From Parcubacteria group bacterium GW2011_GWA2_50_10b (lineage in GTDB: Bacteria; Patescibacteriota; Minisyncoccia; Phycocordibacterales; Zambryskibacteraceae), in contig LCQJ01000005.1 of assembly GCA_001004085.1 (NCBI GenBank), positions 1 to 13,882 on the forward strand: DNA of 13,882 bases, in the 5' to 3' direction. Of the stretch, positions 1,287 to 11,432 are shown in pieces. Each line of letters begins with the position of its first letter. The stretch's first letter is position 1. The notes beneath the pieces were generated by a model. That model was not told where the DNA came from, ran no database searches, and saw only the letters and a list, made by a program, of their open reading frames with translations. Position numbers and translations under genes: made by a program.

Positions 1287-3527
1287 ATGAATGAGTACGA
1301 CCCCAAAGAAATCGAGCCCAAGTGGCAGAAGGAGTGGGAGAAGAAGCGCTCTTATGATGTCGCGGAGGATAGCCCAAAGCCAAAGTACTATTCTTTGATG
1401 GAATTTCCGTATCCCTCCGGAGACGGATTGCATACTGGCCATGTGCGTGGCTATACGGCCATGGATATCATCTCGCGCAAGCGCCGGATGGAAGGTTACA
1501 ATGTCATGTTCCCGATAGGCTACGACGCTTTCGGATTGCCGACGGAGAACTACGCCATCAAAACCAAGCGTCCCCCCGCCGACATCACCAGGGAAAACTG
1601 CGAGAATTTCGAGAAACAGTTCAAGAGTCTCGGTATGTCGTTCGACTGGTCGCGCGAGGTCAATACCACTGACCCGAAGTATTACAAATGGACTCAGTGG
1701 CTCTTTCTTAAATTCCTCGAGCATGGTCTGGCGTACAAGGCGAAGATTCCCATCAACTGGTGCCCGAAGGATAAAATTGGCTTGGCGAACGAAGAAGTAG
1801 TGGACGGCAAATGCGAGCGCTGCGGCACGCTGGTAGAACTTAAGGAGAAGGAGCAATGGATGCTCGCCATTACCAAGTATGCCGACAAGCTTTTGAGCGG
1901 ACTTGATGAAGTCGACTATCCCGAGAGAGTGAAGGTGCAGCAAGAGAACTGGATTGGTCGCTCCGAAGGGGCCCTCATCAGATTTGATGATGTTGAAATA
2001 TTTACCACCCGGCCCGACACCATCCGGGGCGCTACTTTCGTGGTGGTTTCGGGAAAGGCAGATAAATTTACCGGCAAGTATGTGACTAATCCGGCGACGA
2101 AAGAGAAAATCCCGGTCTGGGAAGCCGAATATGTTTACAGCGATTATGGCACGGGCGCCATTATGGGTGTGCCCGCCGACGATGAGAGGGACATGCTTTT
2201 CGCGGAGAAATATAGTTTGCCCATAGTCAGAGATTATACAAAAGCCGGCTTTGAAGATTTCGGGAAAAAAGTTATTAAATATAAACTCCGGGATTGGGTG
2301 TTTTCCAGACAAAGATATTGGGGCGAACCGATACCGGTCATCCATTGTGATAAGCCCGCCCGACCGGACGGTCGTTCGGGCGGGTGCGGCATTGTGCCCG
2401 TGCCAGAGAAAGATTTGCCCGTACTTCTGCCAGAGGTCAAGAATTACCAGCCTACGGACACCGGCGAATCGCCACTGGCTTCGATAGAAGAATGGGTCAA
2501 TGTTGCCTGCCCCAAGTGCGGCGGCAAGGCCAGGCGCGAGACTGACACTATGCCCAACTGGGCCGGCTCTTCCTGGTATTTCCTGCGTTATTGTGACCCG
2601 CATAATGATAAAGAGTTTGCATCAATGGAAAAGTTGAAATACTGGATGGGTGATGCCGGCTTGCCCCGTACCGAACGAAGTTCTGGTACTGGGGTGGATT
2701 GGTACAACGGCGGCATGGAGCACACAGTTTTACACCTTTTATATTCGCGCTTCTGGAACAAATTCCTGTTTGACTTAGGACTCGTGCCGGTGAGCGAGCC
2801 GTACAAGAAGCGCACTTCGCACGGCCTGATTCTGGCCGAAGGCGGAGAGAAGATGAGTAAGTCCAAGGGCAATGTGGTTAATCCCGACGCCATCATCAAA
2901 AGTTTCGGTGCCGACACCTTGCGTCTCTACGAGATGTTTATGGGCCCATTCGAGCAGGCTATTGAGTGGAATGAGAGTTCATTGATTGGTCCAAGAAGAT
3001 TTCTCGAGAAAGTCTGGAAGCTCAAGGCGAAGATTCCTAAAGGTCAGACCTTAAGTATCGGTTCCCAAGGTCTGACCTTAATGCATTCGACGATAAAAAA
3101 GGTATCAGAAGATATCGAGGCCATGAGATTCAACACTGCAGTATCAACTTTAATGATATATGCAAATGCATTGGAAAAACACGGAGGAATTGTACAAGAA
3201 GAATACGAAACTCTGTTAAGGCTGCTCGCGCCGTTCGCGCCACACATGACGGAAGAGTTGTGGCAGTCGCTCGGACATGCTGATTCCATCCATACTCAAC
3301 CATGGCCCAAATATGACCAGAGTAAGCTCAAGAGCGGAGAAGCGACTATTGTTGTTCAGGTCAATGGTCGGGTGCGGGGTAAGTTTGTGGCTTCTATAGA
3401 TATGGGTGAAGCGGAAGCATTTGAGAAAGTTAAAAGTCTTCCGGAAATCCAAAAATGGTTAGTTGGCAAGGAGGTTCTCAAACGAGTTTATGTTCCTGGA
3501 AAAGTGATAAATATCGTAACTTCTTGA
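1287..3527 (+). CDS. leuS: Leucyl-tRNA synthetase with reduced CP1 domain and three palindromic insertions
   Basis: Class I aminoacyl-tRNA synthetase that charges tRNA-Leu in the cytoplasm; 746 residues, shorter than the usual 800-880. Visible are the HIGH-type signature HTGH (49-52), the CP1 region starting IGRSEGALI with TTRPDT and GTGAIMGVPADDERD (it keeps the editing Asp), a cysteine-rich insert, WAGSSWYFLRY, KMSKS (522-526) and a complete C-terminal domain (VVQVNGRVRGKF). Between TTRPDT and GTGAIMGVP about 50-60 residues usual in bacterial LeuRS are missing, including the LAPEH stretch, so proofreading may be reduced. Extra residues at 357-366, about 455-469 and about 585-598 coincide with DNA hairpins. 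ATG 1287 is chosen because MNEYDPKEIEPKWQ is the normal N-terminus and the -10 box sits six bases upstream; an in-frame TTG at 1257 is less likely. The stop is TGA and overlaps downstream promoter sequence. Confidence 0.97.
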   Translation: MNEYDPKEIEPKWQKEWEKKRSYDVAEDSPKPKYYSLMEFPYPSGDGLHTGHVRGYTAMDIISRKRRMEGYNVMFPIGYDAFGLPTENYAIKTKRPPADITRENCENFEKQFKSLGMSFDWSREVNTTDPKYYKWTQWLFLKFLEHGLAYKAKIPINWCPKDKIGLANEEVVDGKCERCGTLVELKEKEQWMLAITKYADKLLSGLDEVDYPERVKVQQENWIGRSEGALIRFDDVEIFTTRPDTIRGATFVVVSGKADKFTGKYVTNPATKEKIPVWEAEYVYSDYGTGAIMGVPADDERDMLFAEKYSLPIVRDYTKAGFEDFGKKVIKYKLRDWVFSRQRYWGEPIPVIHCDKPARPDGRSGGCGIVPVPEKDLPVLLPEVKNYQPTDTGESPLASIEEWVNVACPKCGGKARRETDTMPNWAGSSWYFLRYCDPHNDKEFASMEKLKYWMGDAGLPRTERSSGTGVDWYNGGMEHTVLHLLYSRFWNKFLFDLGLVPVSEPYKKRTSHGLILAEGGEKMSKSKGNVVNPDAIIKSFGADTLRLYEMFMGPFEQAIEWNESSLIGPRRFLEKVWKLKAKIPKGQTLSIGSQGLTLMHSTIKKVSEDIEAMRFNTAVSTLMIYANALEKHGGIVQEEYETLLRLLAPFAPHMTEELWQSLGHADSIHTQPWPKYDQSKLKSGEATIVVQVNGRVRGKFVASIDMGEAEAFEKVKSLPEIQKWLVGKEVLKRVYVPGKVINIVTS
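2355..2384 (+). repeat. GC-rich palindromic insertion in leuS (30 bases, 10 codons)
   Basis: An outer stem pairs 2355-2361 (CCCGCCC) with 2378-2384 (GGGCGGG). An inner stem pairs 2362-2366 (GACCG) with 2369-2373 (CGGTC). Four bases (2374-2377) bulge, giving 12 base pairs in all. The segment is exactly ten codons in phase and encodes PARPDGRSGG. Removing it joins IHCDK to CGIVPVPEKDLP, which is how LeuRS normally reads. This strongly suggests a precise in-frame insertion of a mobile or formerly mobile hairpin. Confidence 0.8.
2664..2694 (+). repeat. Second palindromic insertion in leuS
   Basis: CCCC (2664-2667), GTACC (2668-2672) and GAAC (2673-2676) pair with GTTC (2680-2683), GGTAC (2685-2689) and GGGG (2691-2694). 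There are single bulged T bases at 2684 and 2690 and a GAA loop: 13 base pairs in total. The protein has GDAGLPRTERSSGTG (residues 455-469) between KYWM and VDWYNGGMEH, where LeuRS normally has little more than a proline. The extra residues extend a few codons to the left of the hairpin, so the insertion edges are not exactly the stem ends. Confidence 0.7.
3040..3079 (+). repeat. Third palindromic insertion in leuS (13-bp arms)
   Basis: AAGGTCAGACCTT at 3040-3052 and AAGGTCTGACCTT at 3067-3079 are perfect reverse complements with a 14-base loop. Each arm is itself a near-palindrome around its central base, so the element contains nested symmetry. It encodes about GQTLSIGSQGLT in the linker before the helices of the anticodon-binding domain (LMHSTIKK), a place where insertions would be tolerated. 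Confidence 0.7.
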
Positions 3528-3533
3528 CATCTA

Positions 3534-3562
3534 TTGACACTAGAGGGGTATAGTGATAGAAA
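3534..3562 (+). promoter_or_regulatory. Promoter of the sigma4-HARE gene
   Basis: A consensus TTGACA at 3534-3539, a 17-base spacer, and TAGAAA at 3557-3562 preceded by a TG dinucleotide (3554-3555, extended -10). The expected start would be 4-5 bases before ATG 3573. A second TTGACA at 3524-3529, overlapping the leuS stop, would pair with TATAGT at 3549-3554 only across a long 19-base spacer, so it is the less likely choice. Confidence 0.5.
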
Positions 3563-3572
3563 TAGGCTAAAT

Positions 3573-4610
3573 ATGAGCGAAAAGATTAATCTTAGCTTCA
3601 AGCCGAAGGAGGCGTGCAGACGCCTTTTATCCGTTTTAACCAAGCGCGGGCAGGATGTCATCGTTTCCCGATATGGTCTAGGCGCCAAAGCGCAGAAATT
3701 GACCCTCGACGCCATCGGCAAGAAGTACAACATTACCCGTGAACGCGTCAGACAAATCGAGAATCATTCACTCGCCACTATCCGGAAGTCAAAGGCTTAC
3801 AAAGAAAGCGAACCGGTCTTTACCGAACTCAAAGCGATGCTTCTCGGCCTCGGCGGCATCGTCTCCGAGAAAGATCTCTTGCATCACTTGAGTCCGGACC
3901 CGGGGCTCCAGAATCATTTCCATTTCTTGTTCGTCATCGGCGAAGAATTTAAGCGCGAGAAGGAAGACGAAGAATTCAAGCACCGCTGGCACGTCGACCA
4001 GGAGCTTTCCCAGAAAATCCAGGCCGCTTTGCGCAAACTCTACGCCAAACTATCCGATGACGAACTGGTGGTCGAAGGCGACCTCATCAACTCCTTCCTC
4101 GAGGAAGTCAAAGATCTCAACGACAAGTACAAGAACGAGGAGGTGATCAAGCGCTGGCTCTCCATCTCTCATAAAATCGGCAAGAACCCGCTCGGTGAAT
4201 GGGGACGCGCCTCATCTCCGAACGTCAACGCCAAAGGCATGCGCGATTACGCTTTCCTGGTCATCAGAAAGCACGGCTCTCCCATACACTTCAAGGAAGT
4301 GGCCAAGGCTATCGAGCTTTATTTCAATAAAAAGGCCCATGTCGCCACCACGCACAACGAACTCATCAAAGACAAGCGCTTCGTGCTCGTCGGCCGCGGA
4401 CTCTACGCGCTCTCCGAGTGGGGTTATATGTCCGGCGTGGTCAAAGACGTCATCAGAAAAATTCTCGAGAAAGAAGGACCGCTCTCCAAGGAAAAAATCG
4501 TTGAAAAGGTGCTCAAGGAGCGCTACGTCAAGGAAAACACCATTCTCGTCAACCTGCAGAACTCCAAGTATTTCAAGAAAGACAAAGACAACCGCTACCA
4601 TAACGCCTAA
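3573..4610 (+). CDS. Sigma-70 region 4 / HARE-HTH fusion protein, probable transcription regulator
   Basis: A 345-residue soluble protein. Residues 16-74 resemble sigma factor region 4, the part that reads the -35 box; the helix-turn-helix is LTLDAIGKKYNITRERVRQI (43-62). There is no region 2, so it cannot melt a -10 box as a normal sigma factor does. Residues about 224-285 (RDYAFLVIRKHGSPIHFKEV...GLYALSEWGY) look like a HARE-HTH winged helix, as in the RNA polymerase delta subunit. Another winged-helix-like unit occupies about 289-343, and the middle (76-210) is charged and helical. Inferred role: an RNA polymerase-associated or promoter-binding regulator. ATG 3573 is used; an in-frame TTG at 3534 is part of the promoter. 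A hairpin with a T-tract (3607-3628) lies near its 5' end. It follows leuS directly but has its own promoter. Confidence 0.8.
   Translation: MSEKINLSFKPKEACRRLLSVLTKRGQDVIVSRYGLGAKAQKLTLDAIGKKYNITRERVRQIENHSLATIRKSKAYKESEPVFTELKAMLLGLGGIVSEKDLLHHLSPDPGLQNHFHFLFVIGEEFKREKEDEEFKHRWHVDQELSQKIQAALRKLYAKLSDDELVVEGDLINSFLEEVKDLNDKYKNEEVIKRWLSISHKIGKNPLGEWGRASSPNVNAKGMRDYAFLVIRKHGSPIHFKEVAKAIELYFNKKAHVATTHNELIKDKRFVLVGRGLYALSEWGYMSGVVKDVIRKILEKEGPLSKEKIVEKVLKERYVKENTILVNLQNSKYFKKDKDNRYHNA
3607..3628 (+). other. Terminator-like hairpin early in the sigma4-HARE coding region
   Basis: AGGCGT (3610-3615) pairs with ACGCCT (3620-3625) around a GCAG loop. The stem extends through two G-T wobbles and an A-T pair (3607-3609 with 3626-3628) and runs into TTTTAT. 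The shape is that of an intrinsic terminator or pause site. It lies 35 bases inside the gene, so it could act as an attenuator, but it encodes the normal-looking residues EACRRLL and may be coincidental. Confidence 0.3.
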
Positions 4611-4622
4611 AAAATAGGTTAG

Positions 4623-4692
4623 ACCCCCACACCTACTTTAATACTGCGCTTCGCGCCTAAATGAAATTTGGTATTAAAGTAGGTGTGGGGGT
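4623..4692 (+). repeat. Perfect 22-bp inverted repeat with 26-base loop between genes
   Basis: The arms at 4623-4644 and 4671-4692 are exact reverse complements (arm ends ACCCCCACACC and GGTGTGGGGGT). The loop holds a small GCGC-TTC-GCGC hairpin (4646-4656). No T-tract follows on either strand, so it is not a standard terminator. The right arm runs into the promoter of the next gene: the -35 box overlaps its start, and its last base is the first base of the -10 box. It could be a miniature palindromic mobile element, or a cruciform or RNA hairpin that separates the two transcripts. Confidence 0.85.
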
Positions 4693-4697
4693 AGAAT
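4668..4697 (+). promoter_or_regulatory. Promoter of the DUF8128-like/mltG/mnmA operon, leaderless layout
   Basis: TTGGTA at 4668-4673, an 18-base spacer and TAGAAT at 4692-4697, then six bases to ATG 4704. The promoter overlaps the right arm of the long inverted repeat, so folding of that repeat could interfere with its use. Confidence 0.45.
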
Positions 4698-4703
4698 AGA
4701 ATA

Positions 4704-5951
4704 ATGATATTCGACGATTTCTTCTCTCTGTTTCAGGGCGAAGTACTCATAAAAGCTTTTGGCATCTTGCTCTCCGCCTGGCCGGTCTGGGTGCCCCTGC
4801 TTTTAATCAACGTCGCCTTTACCACCTGGCTGAACTACATCAGGCGCCTGTGGATAGGCAAGCAGGGAAGCGTGCTTTTGGAAATCAGACTGCCCAAGGA
4901 AGTGACCAAATCGCCGGCGGCCATGGAGCTGGTCCTTCAGGGCATCTGGGAGAATGCCAACATCTCCACCCCTGAGGACGCCTTCTGGGAAGGAAAGCTC
5001 CGCGAATGGTTCTCGCTCGAAATAGTCTCCATCGGCGGACAGGTCAAATTCTACATCTGGGCCTTTCCGCGGTGGAGGAAAATCATCGAATCAAGGATTT
5101 ACGCCCAGTATCCGGAAGCGGAGGTGTTTGAGGTCAAAGATTACGCCGTAGATATCAAATATGACCCGGAGAAATTTACCGCCTGGGGTGTTAACACCGG
5201 CCTGGTCAAGGCCGACGCCTATCCCATCAAGACTTATATCGAATACGAGCTCGACAAGAAAACCGGCGACGAACAGGAAGAAATCGTTGACCCCATCACG
5301 CCGGTCATCGAATATCTCGGCATGCTGAAACCGGGCGAAGTGGCCTGTATTCAGATGATTATCCGCGCTCACGCCAAAGAGAACTACCTTTACGGCCATG
5401 TGGGCACGAAACCGGACTGGAGGGGCGACATCAAGAAAGAGATTGAGAAGATGATTCAGGATGAGTCGTTGCTCAAGCCGACCGAAGGTCAGACACAAAG
5501 CTTCCTCAACCTCACCAAATCCCAGACCGAGACTATCGCGGCCATCCAAAGAAATGCCGGCAAGCTCGCTTTCGATACCATGATCCGCCTCATGTACATC
5601 GCCCCCAAGGACGCGTTCGAGAAGACGCGCGGCATGGGTATTATCGGCTCGATGCGCCAGTTTGGTTCGGGCACCCTCAACGGCATCAAGCCTGTTTTCT
5701 TCAGCTTCACTCATCCCTGGCAGGATTGGAACGGTATCCGTAAAAGGGAGAGGATGAATGCTTTTATGGAGGCATTCAAGCGCCGCGCTTTTTTCGGCAC
5801 CCCGCATTATCATTTGTTAGCCAAACCCTATATTCTGACCGTTGAAGAGGTGGCCACTCTTTTCCACTTGCCGGGCTCGGTCGCCACGACACCGACGCTT
5901 TCTCGCGCTCCGTCGAAGAAGTCCGAAGCACCGGCCAATCTGCCCATTTAG
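4704..5951 (+). CDS. DUF8128-like membrane-anchored protein, possible secretion or conjugation-related component
   Basis: A 415-residue protein with one or two N-terminal membrane segments (about residues 14-44) followed by a large soluble domain. It resembles a protein found widely in CPR genomes (I believe the DUF8128 family). Features I associate with it are LLEIRLPKE near residue 60, SLEIVSIGGQVKFYIW, the AQYPEAEVFEVKDY stretch, and a C-terminal ILTVEEVATLFHLPG followed by a proline/serine tail ending PANLPI. In relatives the protein often sits beside a TraC/VirB4- or HerA-type ATPase, so a role in a membrane DNA or protein transfer machine has been suggested, but no ATPase is present here. 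Here mltG follows after five bases, suggesting an envelope link. The function is not established; family assignment is from memory of motifs. Confidence 0.65.
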   Translation: MIFDDFFSLFQGEVLIKAFGILLSAWPVWVPLLLINVAFTTWLNYIRRLWIGKQGSVLLEIRLPKEVTKSPAAMELVLQGIWENANISTPEDAFWEGKLREWFSLEIVSIGGQVKFYIWAFPRWRKIIESRIYAQYPEAEVFEVKDYAVDIKYDPEKFTAWGVNTGLVKADAYPIKTYIEYELDKKTGDEQEEIVDPITPVIEYLGMLKPGEVACIQMIIRAHAKENYLYGHVGTKPDWRGDIKKEIEKMIQDESLLKPTEGQTQSFLNLTKSQTETIAAIQRNAGKLAFDTMIRLMYIAPKDAFEKTRGMGIIGSMRQFGSGTLNGIKPVFFSFTHPWQDWNGIRKRERMNAFMEAFKRRAFFGTPHYHLLAKPYILTVEEVATLFHLPGSVATTPTLSRAPSKKSEAPANLPI

Positions 5952-5956
5952 TCTTC

Positions 5957-6847
5957 ATGCCGCCACCGACTTTAGCCATCGAGAAAAGGATTTACCTTTT
6001 TTTATTAGGGATTGTTGTTTTCGTCTTTATCGTCTGGGGTGTGGCGCCGCCGGCCTCGTACCCCTCCGGCTCCATTATCGATATTCCCGAGGGTTTGGGC
6101 CTTGATGCGCTTTCTCAGAAACTCGAACGGGAAAATGTCATCCGTTCGCCGTTCTGGTTTCGCGCCGCCGCTATCATGCTGGGCGGCGAGCGCGGCATGA
6201 AGGCCGGCGAATACTACCTTTCCCGGCCGCAGAATCCTTTTACCATCGCCTGGCGCATTTTAAACGGTAAATACCAGATTGAGACGGTTAAACTGACCAT
6301 TCCCGAAGGTTTTGACGTCAAGGCCATCTCAAACCTTTTTGACCGGCGCTTTCCGTATTTCGACAACGAATTGTTCATCAGGGTGGCGCCGGAAGGCTAT
6401 CTTTTCCCCGACACTTATTTCGTGCCGGTGACCGCCACCGCCTCTTCCACCATCCGGCTTTTGAGGGACAATTTCATCAGAAAGATTTTCCCGGTCATGC
6501 CGGAAGTGGAGTCTTCCGGCAAATCGCTCGAGGAGATTATCATCATGGCTTCGCTTATCGAGGCGGAAGTCAAGACTCAGGCGGACAGGGAGATGGTTTC
6601 CGATATTCTCTGGAAGCGCCTGAAAATCGGCATGCCACTCCAGGTCGATTCGGAAATGGGTACGTACGAATGGAACGGTCTGCCCGAGCGTCCCATCAAC
6701 AATCCCGGCCTGGAGAGCATCTCGGCGGCCCTGTATCCGACCACTACGCCCTATCTTTATTTCTTGACCGGTGATGACGGCAACATGTACTATTCTCGGA
6801 CCTTCGATGAACATGTCGTCAAAAAACAAAAATACATCTCCCGATAG
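5957..6847 (+). CDS. mltG: Endolytic murein transglycosylase MltG (YceG-like)
   Basis: Cleaves glycan strands of new peptidoglycan at the outer face of the membrane and so sets strand length. 296 residues: one membrane anchor (11-30), a LysM-like part (SGSIIDIPEGLGLDALSQKL), then the catalytic domain with EGYLFPDTYF (146-155) and MASLIEAEVK. E202 corresponds to the catalytic Glu of E. coli MltG. The pattern KIGMPLQVDSEM...NGLPERPINNPG, YLYF and the near-terminal EH are also as expected. The loop between LQVDS and NGLPERP is about 25 residues shorter than in E. coli and lacks the SPYNTY segment, which may narrow the cleft. It starts five bases after the previous stop with no ribosome site, so translation is probably coupled. 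Its last codons and TAG stop lie inside an inverted repeat (6839-6869) and inside mnmA. Confidence 0.92.
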   Translation: MPPPTLAIEKRIYLFLLGIVVFVFIVWGVAPPASYPSGSIIDIPEGLGLDALSQKLERENVIRSPFWFRAAAIMLGGERGMKAGEYYLSRPQNPFTIAWRILNGKYQIETVKLTIPEGFDVKAISNLFDRRFPYFDNELFIRVAPEGYLFPDTYFVPVTATASSTIRLLRDNFIRKIFPVMPEVESSGKSLEEIIIMASLIEAEVKTQADREMVSDILWKRLKIGMPLQVDSEMGTYEWNGLPERPINNPGLESISAALYPTTTPYLYFLTGDDGNMYYSRTFDEHVVKKQKYISR

Positions 6848-7970
6848 CAAAGCAAAGCTTGCTACGGGACAAGCGTTAAGGCCCAGAGTCTTCGTTGGTT
6901 TATCTGGAGGTGTCGATTCTGCCGTGAGTGCCGCGCTGCTCAAGGAACGGGGTTTCGACGTGACGGGAGTCTTTATCAAGGCTTGGCAGCCGCCGTTCAT
7001 GCCCTGCACCTGGCGGGATGAACGGCGCGACGCCATGAGAGTGGCCATCGCGCTCGATATCCCGTTTCTCTTTTTCGACCTGGAGAAGGAATATAAAAAG
7101 GGAGTAGTGGATAAAATGATAGAAGAATATAAGGCTAATCGCACGCCTAATCCGGATGTGCTTTGTAACCGGGAGATTAAATTTGGCGCGTTCTGGGAGA
7201 AGGCCAAGGCACTGGGCGCGGATTTCATCGCTACCGGCCATTACGCACAGGCTTTACAAAGGGTTCCCCTTTATAAAGCTACCAAGGGGAACCCTTTGCA
7301 GTTGAGGGAAGGCAAGGACAAAGAGAAAGACCAGAGTTATTTTCTCTGGACGCTTACTCAGGAAGATCTTTCTCACACGCTTTTCCCGGTCGGTCATCTG
7401 GAAAAACCGGCGGTGAGAAAATTGGCGCAGCAATACAAGCTGCCGGTGGCGGAGAAAAAAGACAGCCAGGGCGTTTGTTTCCTGGGAGAGGTCACCATGG
7501 AGGAATTTCTCTCCCATTTCATCGAAATCAAACCGGGCAAAGTCTTGAATACGGAAGGGGAAACCATCGGTTCCCACCGGGGCGTCATCTATTACACCAT
7601 CGGCGAACGGCACGGCTTTGAAATCACCGACAAAAGCCCGTTAAGCGGCGCTTTCTACGTCATCGCCAAAGACGCGGCGGCCAATACGCTGACCGTTTCG
7701 AATAAAGAAAGCGAAATCCTTTCCCTTTCGCCTTCCAAAATCACGGTCAAGTCGGTCAATTGGCTAAACGAACCGGAGAGTCCCACACTCTCCGCCAGAA
7801 TCCGCTATCGCGCCGATAAGCTGCCCATCACCCTGGTGCTAGCCGGTAAGAAACTGGCGGTAGCCTTCAATGAGCCGGTGCGGGGACTGTCGTTGGGCCA
7901 GTCGGTGGTCTTTTACAGCGGGGAAGAATGTCTCGGCGGTGCTGTGATGGATAAGGTTGCGGCTCTCTAG
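6813..7970 (+). CDS. mnmA: tRNA-specific 2-thiouridylase MnmA with palindromic insertions
   Basis: Puts sulfur on U34 of tRNA-Lys, -Glu and -Gln in the cytoplasm, using ATP and a persulfide relay. 385 residues from this start. Seen are the PP-loop SGGVDS (31-36), NPDVLCNREIKFG with the first catalytic cysteine (C118), GADFIATGHYA, KDQSYFLW, DSQGVCFLGE with the second cysteine (C222), and the C-terminal beta-barrel (IRYR). The gene overlaps the end of mltG by 35 bases. ATG 6807 is two codons upstream in the same frame and equally possible; neither has a clear ribosome site, so coupling to mltG is likely. The first 20-odd residues precede the usual start of the domain and partly come from the inverted repeat at 6839-6869. 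A 14-codon hairpin insertion lies at 7257-7298 and a smaller one perhaps at 7774-7794. Confidence 0.95.
   Translation: MSSKNKNTSPDSKAKLATGQALRPRVFVGLSGGVDSAVSAALLKERGFDVTGVFIKAWQPPFMPCTWRDERRDAMRVAIALDIPFLFFDLEKEYKKGVVDKMIEEYKANRTPNPDVLCNREIKFGAFWEKAKALGADFIATGHYAQALQRVPLYKATKGNPLQLREGKDKEKDQSYFLWTLTQEDLSHTLFPVGHLEKPAVRKLAQQYKLPVAEKKDSQGVCFLGEVTMEEFLSHFIEIKPGKVLNTEGETIGSHRGVIYYTIGERHGFEITDKSPLSGAFYVIAKDAAANTLTVSNKESEILSLSPSKITVKSVNWLNEPESPTLSARIRYRADKLPITLVLAGKKLAVAFNEPVRGLSLGQSVVFYSGEECLGGAVMDKVAAL
6839..6869 (+). repeat. Palindromic element across the mltG stop / mnmA N-terminus
   Basis: TCCCG (6839-6843) pairs with CGGGA (6865-6869), TAGCAA (6845-6850) with TTGCTA (6859-6864), and a GC pair closes further in, with bulged A bases at 6844 and 6851. 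The mltG TAG stop (6845-6847) is in the left arm. In the mnmA frame it encodes residues about S9 to G19, ahead of the conserved domain. The right arm GCTTGCTACGGGA closely resembles GCTTCTAACGGGA at 12887-12899 before infA, so the two may be one element family. Confidence 0.65.
7257..7298 (+). repeat. Palindromic insertion in mnmA (42 bases, 14 codons, 15-bp arms)
   Basis: The arms CAAAGGGTTCCCCTT (7257-7271) and AAGGGGAACCCTTTG (7284-7298) are perfect reverse complements with a 12-base loop. The element is exactly 14 codons in phase (QRVPLYKATKGNPL). Removing it joins GHYAQAL to QLREGKDKEKDQSYFLW, which reads like an ordinary MnmA loop before the KDQSYFL motif. It sits in a surface loop that is variable in the family. 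Confidence 0.8.
7774..7794 (+). repeat. Small inverted repeat in the mnmA 3' region
   Basis: CGGAGAGT (7774-7781) and ACTCTCCG (7787-7794) pair perfectly around CCCAC. The seven codons in between and around encode about PESPTLS, in a loop just before the ARIRYR strand of the C-terminal barrel. Length is a multiple of three, but the loop varies in MnmA, so insertion cannot be told from chance here. Confidence 0.4.
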
Positions 7971-10265: not shown

Positions 10266-11432
10266 ATGCTCTCATCTGAAATACGGCAGAAATTTTTGAA
10301 TTTTTTCGAAAAGCGTGGACACGCTGTTATTCCTTCGGCTTCGCTCGTGCCCAACAAAAGCGATAGCTCGGTTCTTTTTACAACGGCTGGTATGCAGCCT
10401 CTGGTCCCGTACCTCATGGGCAATCCTCATCCGGCTGGGAAGCGCCTGGTCAATATCCAGAAATGCGTGCGTACCCAGGACATCGACGAAGTGGGGGACA
10501 ATACTCACGACACTTTTTTCGAGATGCTCGGTAACTGGTCTCTGGGAGATTATTTTAAAGAAGAGGCTATTCAGTGGAGCTACGAATTGCTAACGTCTAA
10601 AGAAGAAGGCTTCGGTCTCGATATTAATAGATTGCATGTAACAGTCTTCGAGGGAGATGAATATGCTCCGCGCGATGATGAATCTGCCAAAATTTGGGAA
10701 AAAATCGGTATACCAAAAGAGAAAATCAAATATTTGGGTGCCGCTGACAATTGGTGGCCTGCTCGAAAGACCGATTTCAACTGGACCGGTCCAACTGGAC
10801 CTTGCACTGAAATGTTTTATGACGATGTCGAGATTTGGAATGATGTCTTCATGGAATACAGTGCGGAAAACGGTAAGATTACCGGTAAACTTTCGCAGAA
10901 AAACGTCGACACTGGTGCCGGACTTGAGCGTCTCGCCATGGTCCTTCAGGGCAAAGACAACATTTTTGATACAGACCTCTTCAGCTCTATCATGTCCGCT
11001 GCCGGCTCGAGAATCGTCGCCGACCATATCCGCACAGCCTGCTTTATGATTGCCGACGGCGTGACTCCATCCAACACCGACCGCGGGTACATACTGCGCC
11101 GTCTCTTGCGCCGCGCTTATGTGAGGAATAAGGACCTCGGTCCGGTTATCGATGCTGTGATTAACCACACAAGTTACAAAGGACTTTATACTTTCTCCCC
11201 CGATACTCAAGAGGTCATAGCCCAAGAGTTGGAAAAGTTTAAAAAAGCGCTTGACGCGGGCCTCAAGCAAATAGAAAAAGGAGAGGACCCCTTTATACTT
11301 TTTACGAGTTTTGGTTTACCATTAGAGATCATTGAAGAAGTGACAAAGATTGACCGGGCTAAATTTGAAAAGCAGATGGCAGAACACAAACGACTTTCGA
11401 GCGTCTCTGGTGAGCAGAAATTTAAAAAGTAA
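10266..11432 (+). CDS. alaS: Minimal alanyl-tRNA synthetase (catalytic and tRNA-recognition part only)
   Basis: Class II synthetase that charges tRNA-Ala. It is 388 residues, against roughly 850-900 in most bacteria. The catalytic core is complete: FTTAGMQPLVPYL, the motif 2 region CVRTQDIDEVG with R69, THDTFFEMLGNWSLGDYF, NWTGPTGPC, EIWNDVFMEY and motif 3 VDTGAGLERL (214-223). The tRNA-recognition helices follow (ADHIRTACFMIADGV, GYILRRLLRRAYVR), with a few dozen residues missing before them. The protein ends at EHKRLSSVSGEQKFKK, where ordinary AlaRS continues into the editing and C-Ala domains. No remaining part is encoded downstream, so either this is a natural mini-enzyme, as the short AlaRS-like proteins of CPR bacteria suggest, or the editing part is supplied by another gene. 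Loss of editing would permit Ser/Gly mischarging unless an AlaX protein helps. Confidence 0.92.
   Translation: MLSSEIRQKFLNFFEKRGHAVIPSASLVPNKSDSSVLFTTAGMQPLVPYLMGNPHPAGKRLVNIQKCVRTQDIDEVGDNTHDTFFEMLGNWSLGDYFKEEAIQWSYELLTSKEEGFGLDINRLHVTVFEGDEYAPRDDESAKIWEKIGIPKEKIKYLGAADNWWPARKTDFNWTGPTGPCTEMFYDDVEIWNDVFMEYSAENGKITGKLSQKNVDTGAGLERLAMVLQGKDNIFDTDLFSSIMSAAGSRIVADHIRTACFMIADGVTPSNTDRGYILRRLLRRAYVRNKDLGPVIDAVINHTSYKGLYTFSPDTQEVIAQELEKFKKALDAGLKQIEKGEDPFILFTSFGLPLEIIEEVTKIDRAKFEKQMAEHKRLSSVSGEQKFKK

What the first reader, a model, noticed from the sequence alone, without database searches (positions are those of the whole stretch)
2355..7298. A set of in-frame hairpin elements inside housekeeping genes, similar in kind to Rickettsia palindromic elements
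Seen: five hairpins in coding DNA (2355-2384, 2664-2694 and 3040-3079 in leuS; 6839-6869 and 7257-7298 in mnmA), plus a weaker one at 7774-7794. The best cases are whole codons in phase and match extra residues at sites where the protein family normally has none. Known: Rickettsia palindromic elements insert in frame in genes. Inference: this genome carries small palindromic elements, of several unrelated sequences, that survive in proteins because they land in surface loops and stay in frame. Two essential genes hold most of them, which suggests broad spread across the genome.
Basis: partly seen in the sequence, partly recalled or inferred. Interest (0 to 1): 0.85.

Follow-up and report, generated by a model that had tools for sequence, protein, structure and literature searches.

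The report
In-frame DNA hairpins in bacterial enzymes
A group of tiny uncultured bacteria carries a family of about 40-base self-complementary DNA pieces that sit, in frame, inside loops of essential proteins, much like the selfish palindromes known from Rickettsia but far smaller and with paired sequence changes that keep the hairpin intact.

Summary
In leuS, 2355-2384 is an exact 10-codon insert, 2664-2694 lies in a 14-codon insert, and 3039-3080 is a 14-codon element; in mnmA, 7257-7298 fills a variable loop. 6839-6869 straddles the mltG/mnmA junction; 7774-7794 is not an insert. 3039-3080 belongs to a dispersed family, AAGG-n5-CCTT / loop near AAGTACTGATTCCC / AAGG-n5'-CCTT; 7257-7298 has the same arm form. 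A covariance model finds the family in 14 of 17 genus genomes. Of 83 places 77 had DNA at hand, and 65 lie in ORFs of at least 140 aa, with no stop inside, at 36 sites. At shared sites stem differences are mostly paired (174 compensated, 18 with G-U, 44 broken). Near-identical LeuRS proteins differ in this block. Best reading: RPE-like protein-coding palindromic elements, a small Patescibacteria variant. Mobility and its agent are inferred: none of 20 Y1-transposase loci examined carries the family, and no clean empty site at DNA level or target duplication was resolved.

The parts
3039..3080 (+). Member of the main family in leuS: 13-bp arms AAGGTCAGACCTT/AAGGTCTGACCTT around a 14-base loop; encodes KGQTLSIGSQGLTL (LeuRS residues 585-598)
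   Evidence: the same site is occupied in 8 species
7257..7298 (+). Hairpin in mnmA with the same arm form (AAGGGTTCCCCTT/AAGGGGAACCCTT at 7259-7296) but a different 12-base loop; residues 148-161 of MnmA, variable loop
   Evidence: not among the model hits
2355..2384 (+). Exact 30-base, 10-codon insert in leuS between the two cysteines of a C-x2-C motif; encodes PARPDGRSGG; other hairpin family
2664..2694 (+). Bulged hairpin inside a 14-residue leuS insert
6839..6869 (+). Bulged hairpin across the mltG stop codon and the leader of mnmA; weakest of the set
1287..3527 (+). leuS, host gene of three hairpins
6816..7970 (+). mnmA, host gene of one hairpin (start codon not certain)

Best explanation
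The window carries small protein-coding palindromic elements. The main family is a 40-42 base unit: two 13-base arms AAGG-n5-CCTT, each itself a quasi-palindrome and together reverse complements, around a conserved loop. It works like the Rickettsia palindromic elements: a non-autonomous hairpin is copied or moved to new places by an activity not yet identified, and inside genes only those copies survive that add whole codons without a stop at loops able to take about 14 extra residues, where they would be translated as KGQTLSTDSQGLTL-like peptides. SHOWN: dispersed homologous copies; extra residues relative to relatives; open reading frame through the element; shared sites; paired stem changes; turnover at the leuS site. 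INFERRED: mobility; that the hairpin is what is recognised, copied or corrected at DNA level; neutrality in the protein. NOT SHOWN: the enzyme, a target duplication, translation.
For: Family in 10 of 17 genus genomes and 0 of 14 other genomes of the family by exact pattern, control 0; by covariance model 14 of 17 and 4 of 14. 32 of 32 pattern copies in open ORFs, the shortest 161 aa; 65 of 77 model places in ORFs of at least 140 aa, none with a stop inside, 35 of 39 copies of 42 bases in one phase, two of the other four being rplC copies read on the wrong strand. Same host sites in several species and empty or short sites in others: LepA, LeuRS, uL3 and others. LepA and an EF-G-like protein carry it at the equivalent place before DTPGH. 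Stem pairs vary on both sides. Presence on the LeuRS tree needs 18 changes; with one row per distinct linker this is about as scattered as shuffled labels (18 against a mean of 19.9), and nearly identical proteins differ in the block. In-ORF hairpins with loops of 8 or more: 10 in 178 kb here, 1 in 100 kb, 0 in 20 kb and 0 in 45 kb in controls. Related copies, many in no long ORF, in Lloydbacteria.
Against: No clean presence/absence pair at DNA level: in the nearest pair the block is exchanged, not simply missing. No target duplication seen. No Y1_Tnp locus of 20 carries the family, and Y1 counts do not follow element counts (G023 and G024 have Y1 genes but no element). Shared sites in up to 8 species could mean old inheritance rather than movement. 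Three of the five window hairpins are outside this family.
Confidence: 0.7

Rival explanations
1. The hairpins are kept for a function in the mRNA (binding site, pause, stability), so stem and loop are under direct selection and movement is past or minor.
For: Paired changes; conserved loop while the arms change completely in rplC; one orientation to the gene in most copies (47 sense, 8 antisense, 10 undecided of 65; two of the 8 are rplC copies read on the wrong strand, so 49 and 6), although 61 of 65 have an open frame on both strands.
Against: Very different host genes; many species lack it at any given site; near-absence of G-U pairs in the 24 aligned copies is not what RNA selection alone predicts; Lloydbacteria relatives are often outside long ORFs.
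Confidence: 0.15
2. Local template switching during replication makes hairpins by copying neighbouring DNA in inverse; no mobile family is needed.
For: Other perfect stems with short loops occur here in coding DNA that aligns without gaps; flanks beyond the arms are inverse copies in G157 and Lloydbacteria.
Against: It cannot give the same arms and loop at 36 sites. It may explain how stems stay paired, and possibly 2664-2694 and 6839-6869.
Confidence: 0.08
3. Hypervariable linkers exchanged by homologous recombination between species; the hairpin is an incidental passenger.
For: The P0036/P0103 exchange; many different linker sequences at the leuS site.
Against: The same element occurs at 36 sites of unrelated genes, including tight beta-turns before DTPGH.
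Confidence: 0.05
4. The element is skipped or removed before the protein is made (translational bypass or splicing).
For: A hairpin of nearly fixed length inside essential genes.
Against: The frame stays open through all 65 ORF copies, and other loop lengths come with a shifted arm phase that keeps the downstream frame; a skipped element would not need this.
Confidence: 0.02

Closest known systems
Rickettsia palindromic elements (RPE); Wolbachia protein-coding palindromes (PMC2229807 and PMC10969869: passages read; the Ogata and Claverie papers seen only in reference lists, one search found one not held)
   Same: Palindromic, stem-loop forming, dispersed, in frame inside unrelated conserved genes, also outside genes
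   Different: RPE are 105-146 bp (PMC2229807 passage); these are about 36-46 bp, the arms are themselves quasi-palindromes, and sites are shared across many species with paired stem changes. Sequence relation to RPE not tested
Intragenic GTAG/CGTC REPs, including R. conorii RPE-4 and RPE-6 (PMC3733652, passages read)
   Same: Small hairpins, some inside ORFs and translated
   Different: No consistent GTAG or CGTC tag; not found at the Y1_Tnp loci examined
Coding palindromes in Nematomorpha mitochondria (PMC6649704, abstract and outline read)
   Same: Perfect inverted repeats inside translated genes
   Different: There both arms encode conserved residues; here the residues are extra
Bypass elements (byp) of yeast mitochondria and double-hairpin elements (recalled, not looked up)
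   Same: Mobile hairpins inside genes
   Different: Here the reading frame is kept through the element

Membership tests
RPE-like protein-coding palindromic repeats | Repeated palindrome with a long stem-loop | tested here: met
RPE-like protein-coding palindromic repeats | In frame within ORFs of unrelated conserved proteins | tested here: met
   32 of 32 pattern copies; 65 of 77 model places
RPE-like protein-coding palindromic repeats | Residues absent from relatives at the site | tested here: met
   shown for several hosts, not for all 36 sites
RPE-like protein-coding palindromic repeats | Size of about 100-150 bp | tested here: not met
   40-42 bp typical
RPE-like protein-coding palindromic repeats | Sequence relation to RPE families | not tested
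   no RPE sequence was compared
RPE-like protein-coding palindromic repeats | Element is translated and the protein works | not testable with these tools
   open frame only
REP (GTAG or CGTC type) | GTAG or CGTC tag at the stem base | tested here: not met
   within 8 bases of the stem in 1 of 32 genus copies and 7 of 65 Lloydbacteria copies
REP (GTAG or CGTC type) | Linked Y1 transposase (RAYT) flanked by the repeat | tested here: not met
   0 of 20 Y1 loci fetched; more Y1 genes exist than were fetched
MITE | Target site duplication | tested here: inconclusive
   species too diverged at DNA level; no duplication seen
Translational bypass elements (recalled) | Reading frame need not be kept through the element | tested here: not met
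   0 stops in 65 ORF copies

The most novel reading that the evidence does not exclude
The hairpin itself is actively maintained. The element is recognised by a trans-acting DNA-level activity whose preferred stem differs between species, so copies in one genome drift together (G016 mostly AAGGC..GCCTT where others have AAGGT..ACCTT; same-genome excess 0.075, reached by 1 of 1000 label shuffles) and orthologous copies keep pairing by double changes. Essential genes of these bacteria would host a living, co-evolving population of coding hairpins, sometimes nested one in another or, in other lineages, set at the tip of site-specific outer stems.
Probability: 0.3. Interest if true: 0.88.

Novelty: new variant of a known kind. 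Interest (0 to 1): 0.72.

Why it matters
Protein-coding palindromes are a puzzle known mainly from Rickettsia and Wolbachia. A second, rich system in reduced Patescibacteria, much smaller and sitting at the same sites in many species, makes the open questions testable: which activity spreads them, why the stem stays paired, and how essential enzymes and ribosomal proteins gain loops. It also warns that indels in marker proteins of these bacteria (leuS, rplC, argS, lepA) come and go and are a poor basis for phylogeny.

Tried and rejected
7774-7794 was rejected as an insert. A Y1/RAYT origin was looked for and not supported: the two genus genomes without Y1 genes have one weak or no model hit (G015, G026), which fits, but G023 and G024 have Y1 genes and no hit, and no fetched Y1 locus carries the family. 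A viral origin: 0 matches (loop one base too long) and 1, whose stem has 5 mismatches, so I treat it as chance. Rfam at gathering scores: no match in the window. The intergenic hairpin 4623-4692 belongs to another repeat family and was set aside.

Mistake to know: the pattern was one base too long (loop 15, total 41) and missed the window's own form. It used the only genome-contig scan, but showed the related 41-base Lloydbacteria elements. The corrected pattern was used (3 of 383 genomes drawn from the class).

Rows dropped and cautions: A1 holds 24 rows; of 23 pattern-found 42-mers I left out two (L031, L049_2001) with another loop and one mispair each, and added three variants; the pattern itself fixes most arm positions, so leans towards pairing. 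In one search two rplC copies are entered twice; 48 of 67 entries have no mispair. One search merged LepA and an EF-G-like paralogue into one site and read the two rplC copies of G000 and G016 on the wrong strand (corrected). Of 83 model places 6 had no DNA at hand. Model E-values are rough, and in 30 of 31 genomes only 150 first-look candidates were scored, so counts are lower bounds. Label shuffles do not correct for relatedness; the same-site excess (0.067) was reached by 53 of 1000. In one search five rows were classed by hand; with one row per distinct linker the trait is not more clustered than shuffled labels (18 changes; mean 19.9, least 14). That the 12 copies outside long ORFs interrupt no gene was judged only from ORF positions. 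Host gene names other than leuS, mnmA and mltG are recalled from peptide motifs, not from a family search.

Full report
WHAT WAS CHECKED. The window is contig C5 of a 384,075-base draft genome of 31 contigs, 77.65% complete. Several close LeuRS relatives are named Candidatus Zambryskibacteria. The window scan with shuffles is; folding is. Two of the five hairpins (3040-3079, 7257-7298) exceed anything in 20 shuffles; 2355-2384 is at chance level as a bare stem; 2664-2694 and 6839-6869 are bulged stems that the ungapped scan does not report.

PRESENCE AND ABSENCE. LeuRS was searched in 17 genus genomes and 16 rows from 15 genomes, some partial, were aligned. PARPDGRSGG (2355-2384) occurs in G000 and G026 and is absent from the 12 other rows covering the site; among 120 listed homologues 2 have C-x12-C, 110 have C-x2-C, and 8 give 1 in my count because my pattern did not match them. 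The insert at 2664-2694 is absent from 13 rows; G021 has a shorter, different one; P0007 has the same residues there. T. thermophilus LeuRS has gaps of 10 and 14 residues. The linker at 3039-3080 carries the element in eight species and other sequences in the rest. In MnmA (16 rows) the 7257-7298 loop is short in many relatives and differently filled in others. The LeuRS model (mean pLDDT 78.2) has each of the three inserts overlapping a segment under 50; the last residues of the third lie in a predicted helix.

THE FAMILY. In 164 kb of other contigs plus the window, long-loop hairpins inside ORFs share one form: AAGG-n5-CCTT, a loop near AAGTACTGATTCCC, AAGG-n5'-CCTT. The arm pattern occurs twice in the window, at 3040 and 7259. 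ORF hairpins with stem score 12 or more and loop 8 or more: 10 in 178 kb, against 1 in 100 kb of two sister genera, 0 in 20 kb of another family and 0 in 45 kb of E. coli. An exact pattern finds the family in 10 of 17 genus genomes and 0 of 14 others, control 0; 32 of 32 distinct copies are in open ORFs. A covariance model finds it in 14 of 17 and 4 of 14. Of 83 places 77 had DNA at hand and 65 lie in ORFs of at least 140 aa; 62 of these 65, out of 74 catalogued, are in the genus. None of the 65 has a stop inside; 35 of 39 copies of 42 bases share one phase, reading mostly [KQ]GxTLxTDSQGxTL. The 65 fall at 36 sites, 14 of them shared by two or more genomes. Hosts, named by recall, include leuS, rplC, argS, lepA, an EF-G-like factor, gatB, dusB, ligA, topA, cysS.

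STRUCTURE KEPT WHILE SEQUENCE CHANGES. In 24 aligned copies all 312 pair cells are standard; six of 13 pairs vary, always on both sides; 0 of 500 shuffles reach the covariation score, with the selection caveat told in Tried and rejected. At shared sites, species comparisons give 765 unchanged, 174 compensated, 18 with G-U and 44 broken pairs. Stems resemble those elsewhere in the same genome more than expected (excess 0.075, 1 of 1000 shuffles); the same-site excess is 0.067 (53 of 1000). The rplC copies of G000 and G016 keep loop and frame but have quite different paired arms. Orientation to the gene: 47 sense, 8 antisense, 10 undecided; with the two rplC copies corrected, 49 and 6.

TURNOVER. 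On a tree of 93 LeuRS homologues without the linker, presence needs 18 changes (shuffled mean 27, least 21); with one row per distinct linker, 18 against a mean of 19.9 and least 14, so it is hardly clustered. P0036 and P0103, aligned over 719 columns, have 20 differences, 15 of them in a 22-column linker block: element in one, unrelated sequence in the other. That is recent replacement, not a clean insertion, and these are metagenome proteins whose DNA was not seen. Some linkers look nested, such as KGLAGEGQTLSIDSQGLTFKSETQ beside KGLTLKSETL; one genus locus shows an outer 10-bp stem around the element (L034).

WIDER DISTRIBUTION. Related elements occur in a Lloydbacteria genome (65 copies read, 38 in no ORF of 140 aa or more) and in small numbers in other genomes, some inside ORFs at places like those in this genus. 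In Lloydbacteria and G157 the flanks beyond the arms are inverse complements of each other (mean 6.06 against 2.68, and 6.29 against 1.63 for swapped flanks); in 55 genus copies they are not (0.53 against 0.75).

WHAT IT IS NOT. No consistent GTAG or CGTC tag, no copy at 20 Y1_Tnp loci, no Rfam match in the window, no convincing viral copy. In print: searches of the held open-access library listed no paper that, by title or abstract beginning, describes such elements in candidate phyla radiation bacteria; some searches showed only part of their hits, and most subscription papers are not held.

JUDGEMENT. These work like Rickettsia palindromic elements and meet the features tested that matter most, but not the RPE size; sequence relation to RPE was not tested. 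I file them as a new variant of protein-coding palindromic elements. Mobility and its agent remain inferred.

Noticed in passing
window 4623-4692; L016:6156, L018:247, L021:5456, L023:8552, L024:1985: A second repeat family, ACCCCCACACCTA ... TAGGTGTGGGGGT, with loops of 4 to 37 bases, six copies in the sampled contigs, not in long ORFs except one 115-aa, one 185-aa and one 90-aa frame (window copy z -9.8).
   Followed up: no
LeuRS of G014, G015, G016, G022; P0007, P0049, P0093, P0107, P0120, P0106, P0108: A foreign domain of about 150 residues is inserted in LeuRS between the editing and catalytic parts: NUDIX (PF00293) in some, alpha/beta-hydrolase families in P0106 and P0108, another unrelated stretch in G017.
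   Followed up: no
L127:10994, L119:5594, L113:10369, L113:10458, L129:8581: Perfect or near-perfect 12-18 bp stems with 3-4 base loops in coding DNA that aligns without gaps to relatives; hint of template-switch correction of quasi-palindromes.
   Followed up: partly
G000:C9, L013:4219-4245 and 4872-4900: A Y1_Tnp gene flanked on both sides by its own hairpins ACTTGGCGGT-nnn-ACCGCCAAGT, a REP/RAYT-like set unlike the main family.
   Followed up: partly
LeuRS linker in P0016, P0017, P0035, P0037, P0109 and G015; G015 L122: Another recurrent insert peptide (SSDV..GKHGQ) at sites where relatives carry the main family.
   Followed up: no
window 10266-11432: AlaRS ORF of only 388 aa, matching the catalytic family PF01411 to position 432 of 552 and nothing else in Pfam.
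   Followed up: no
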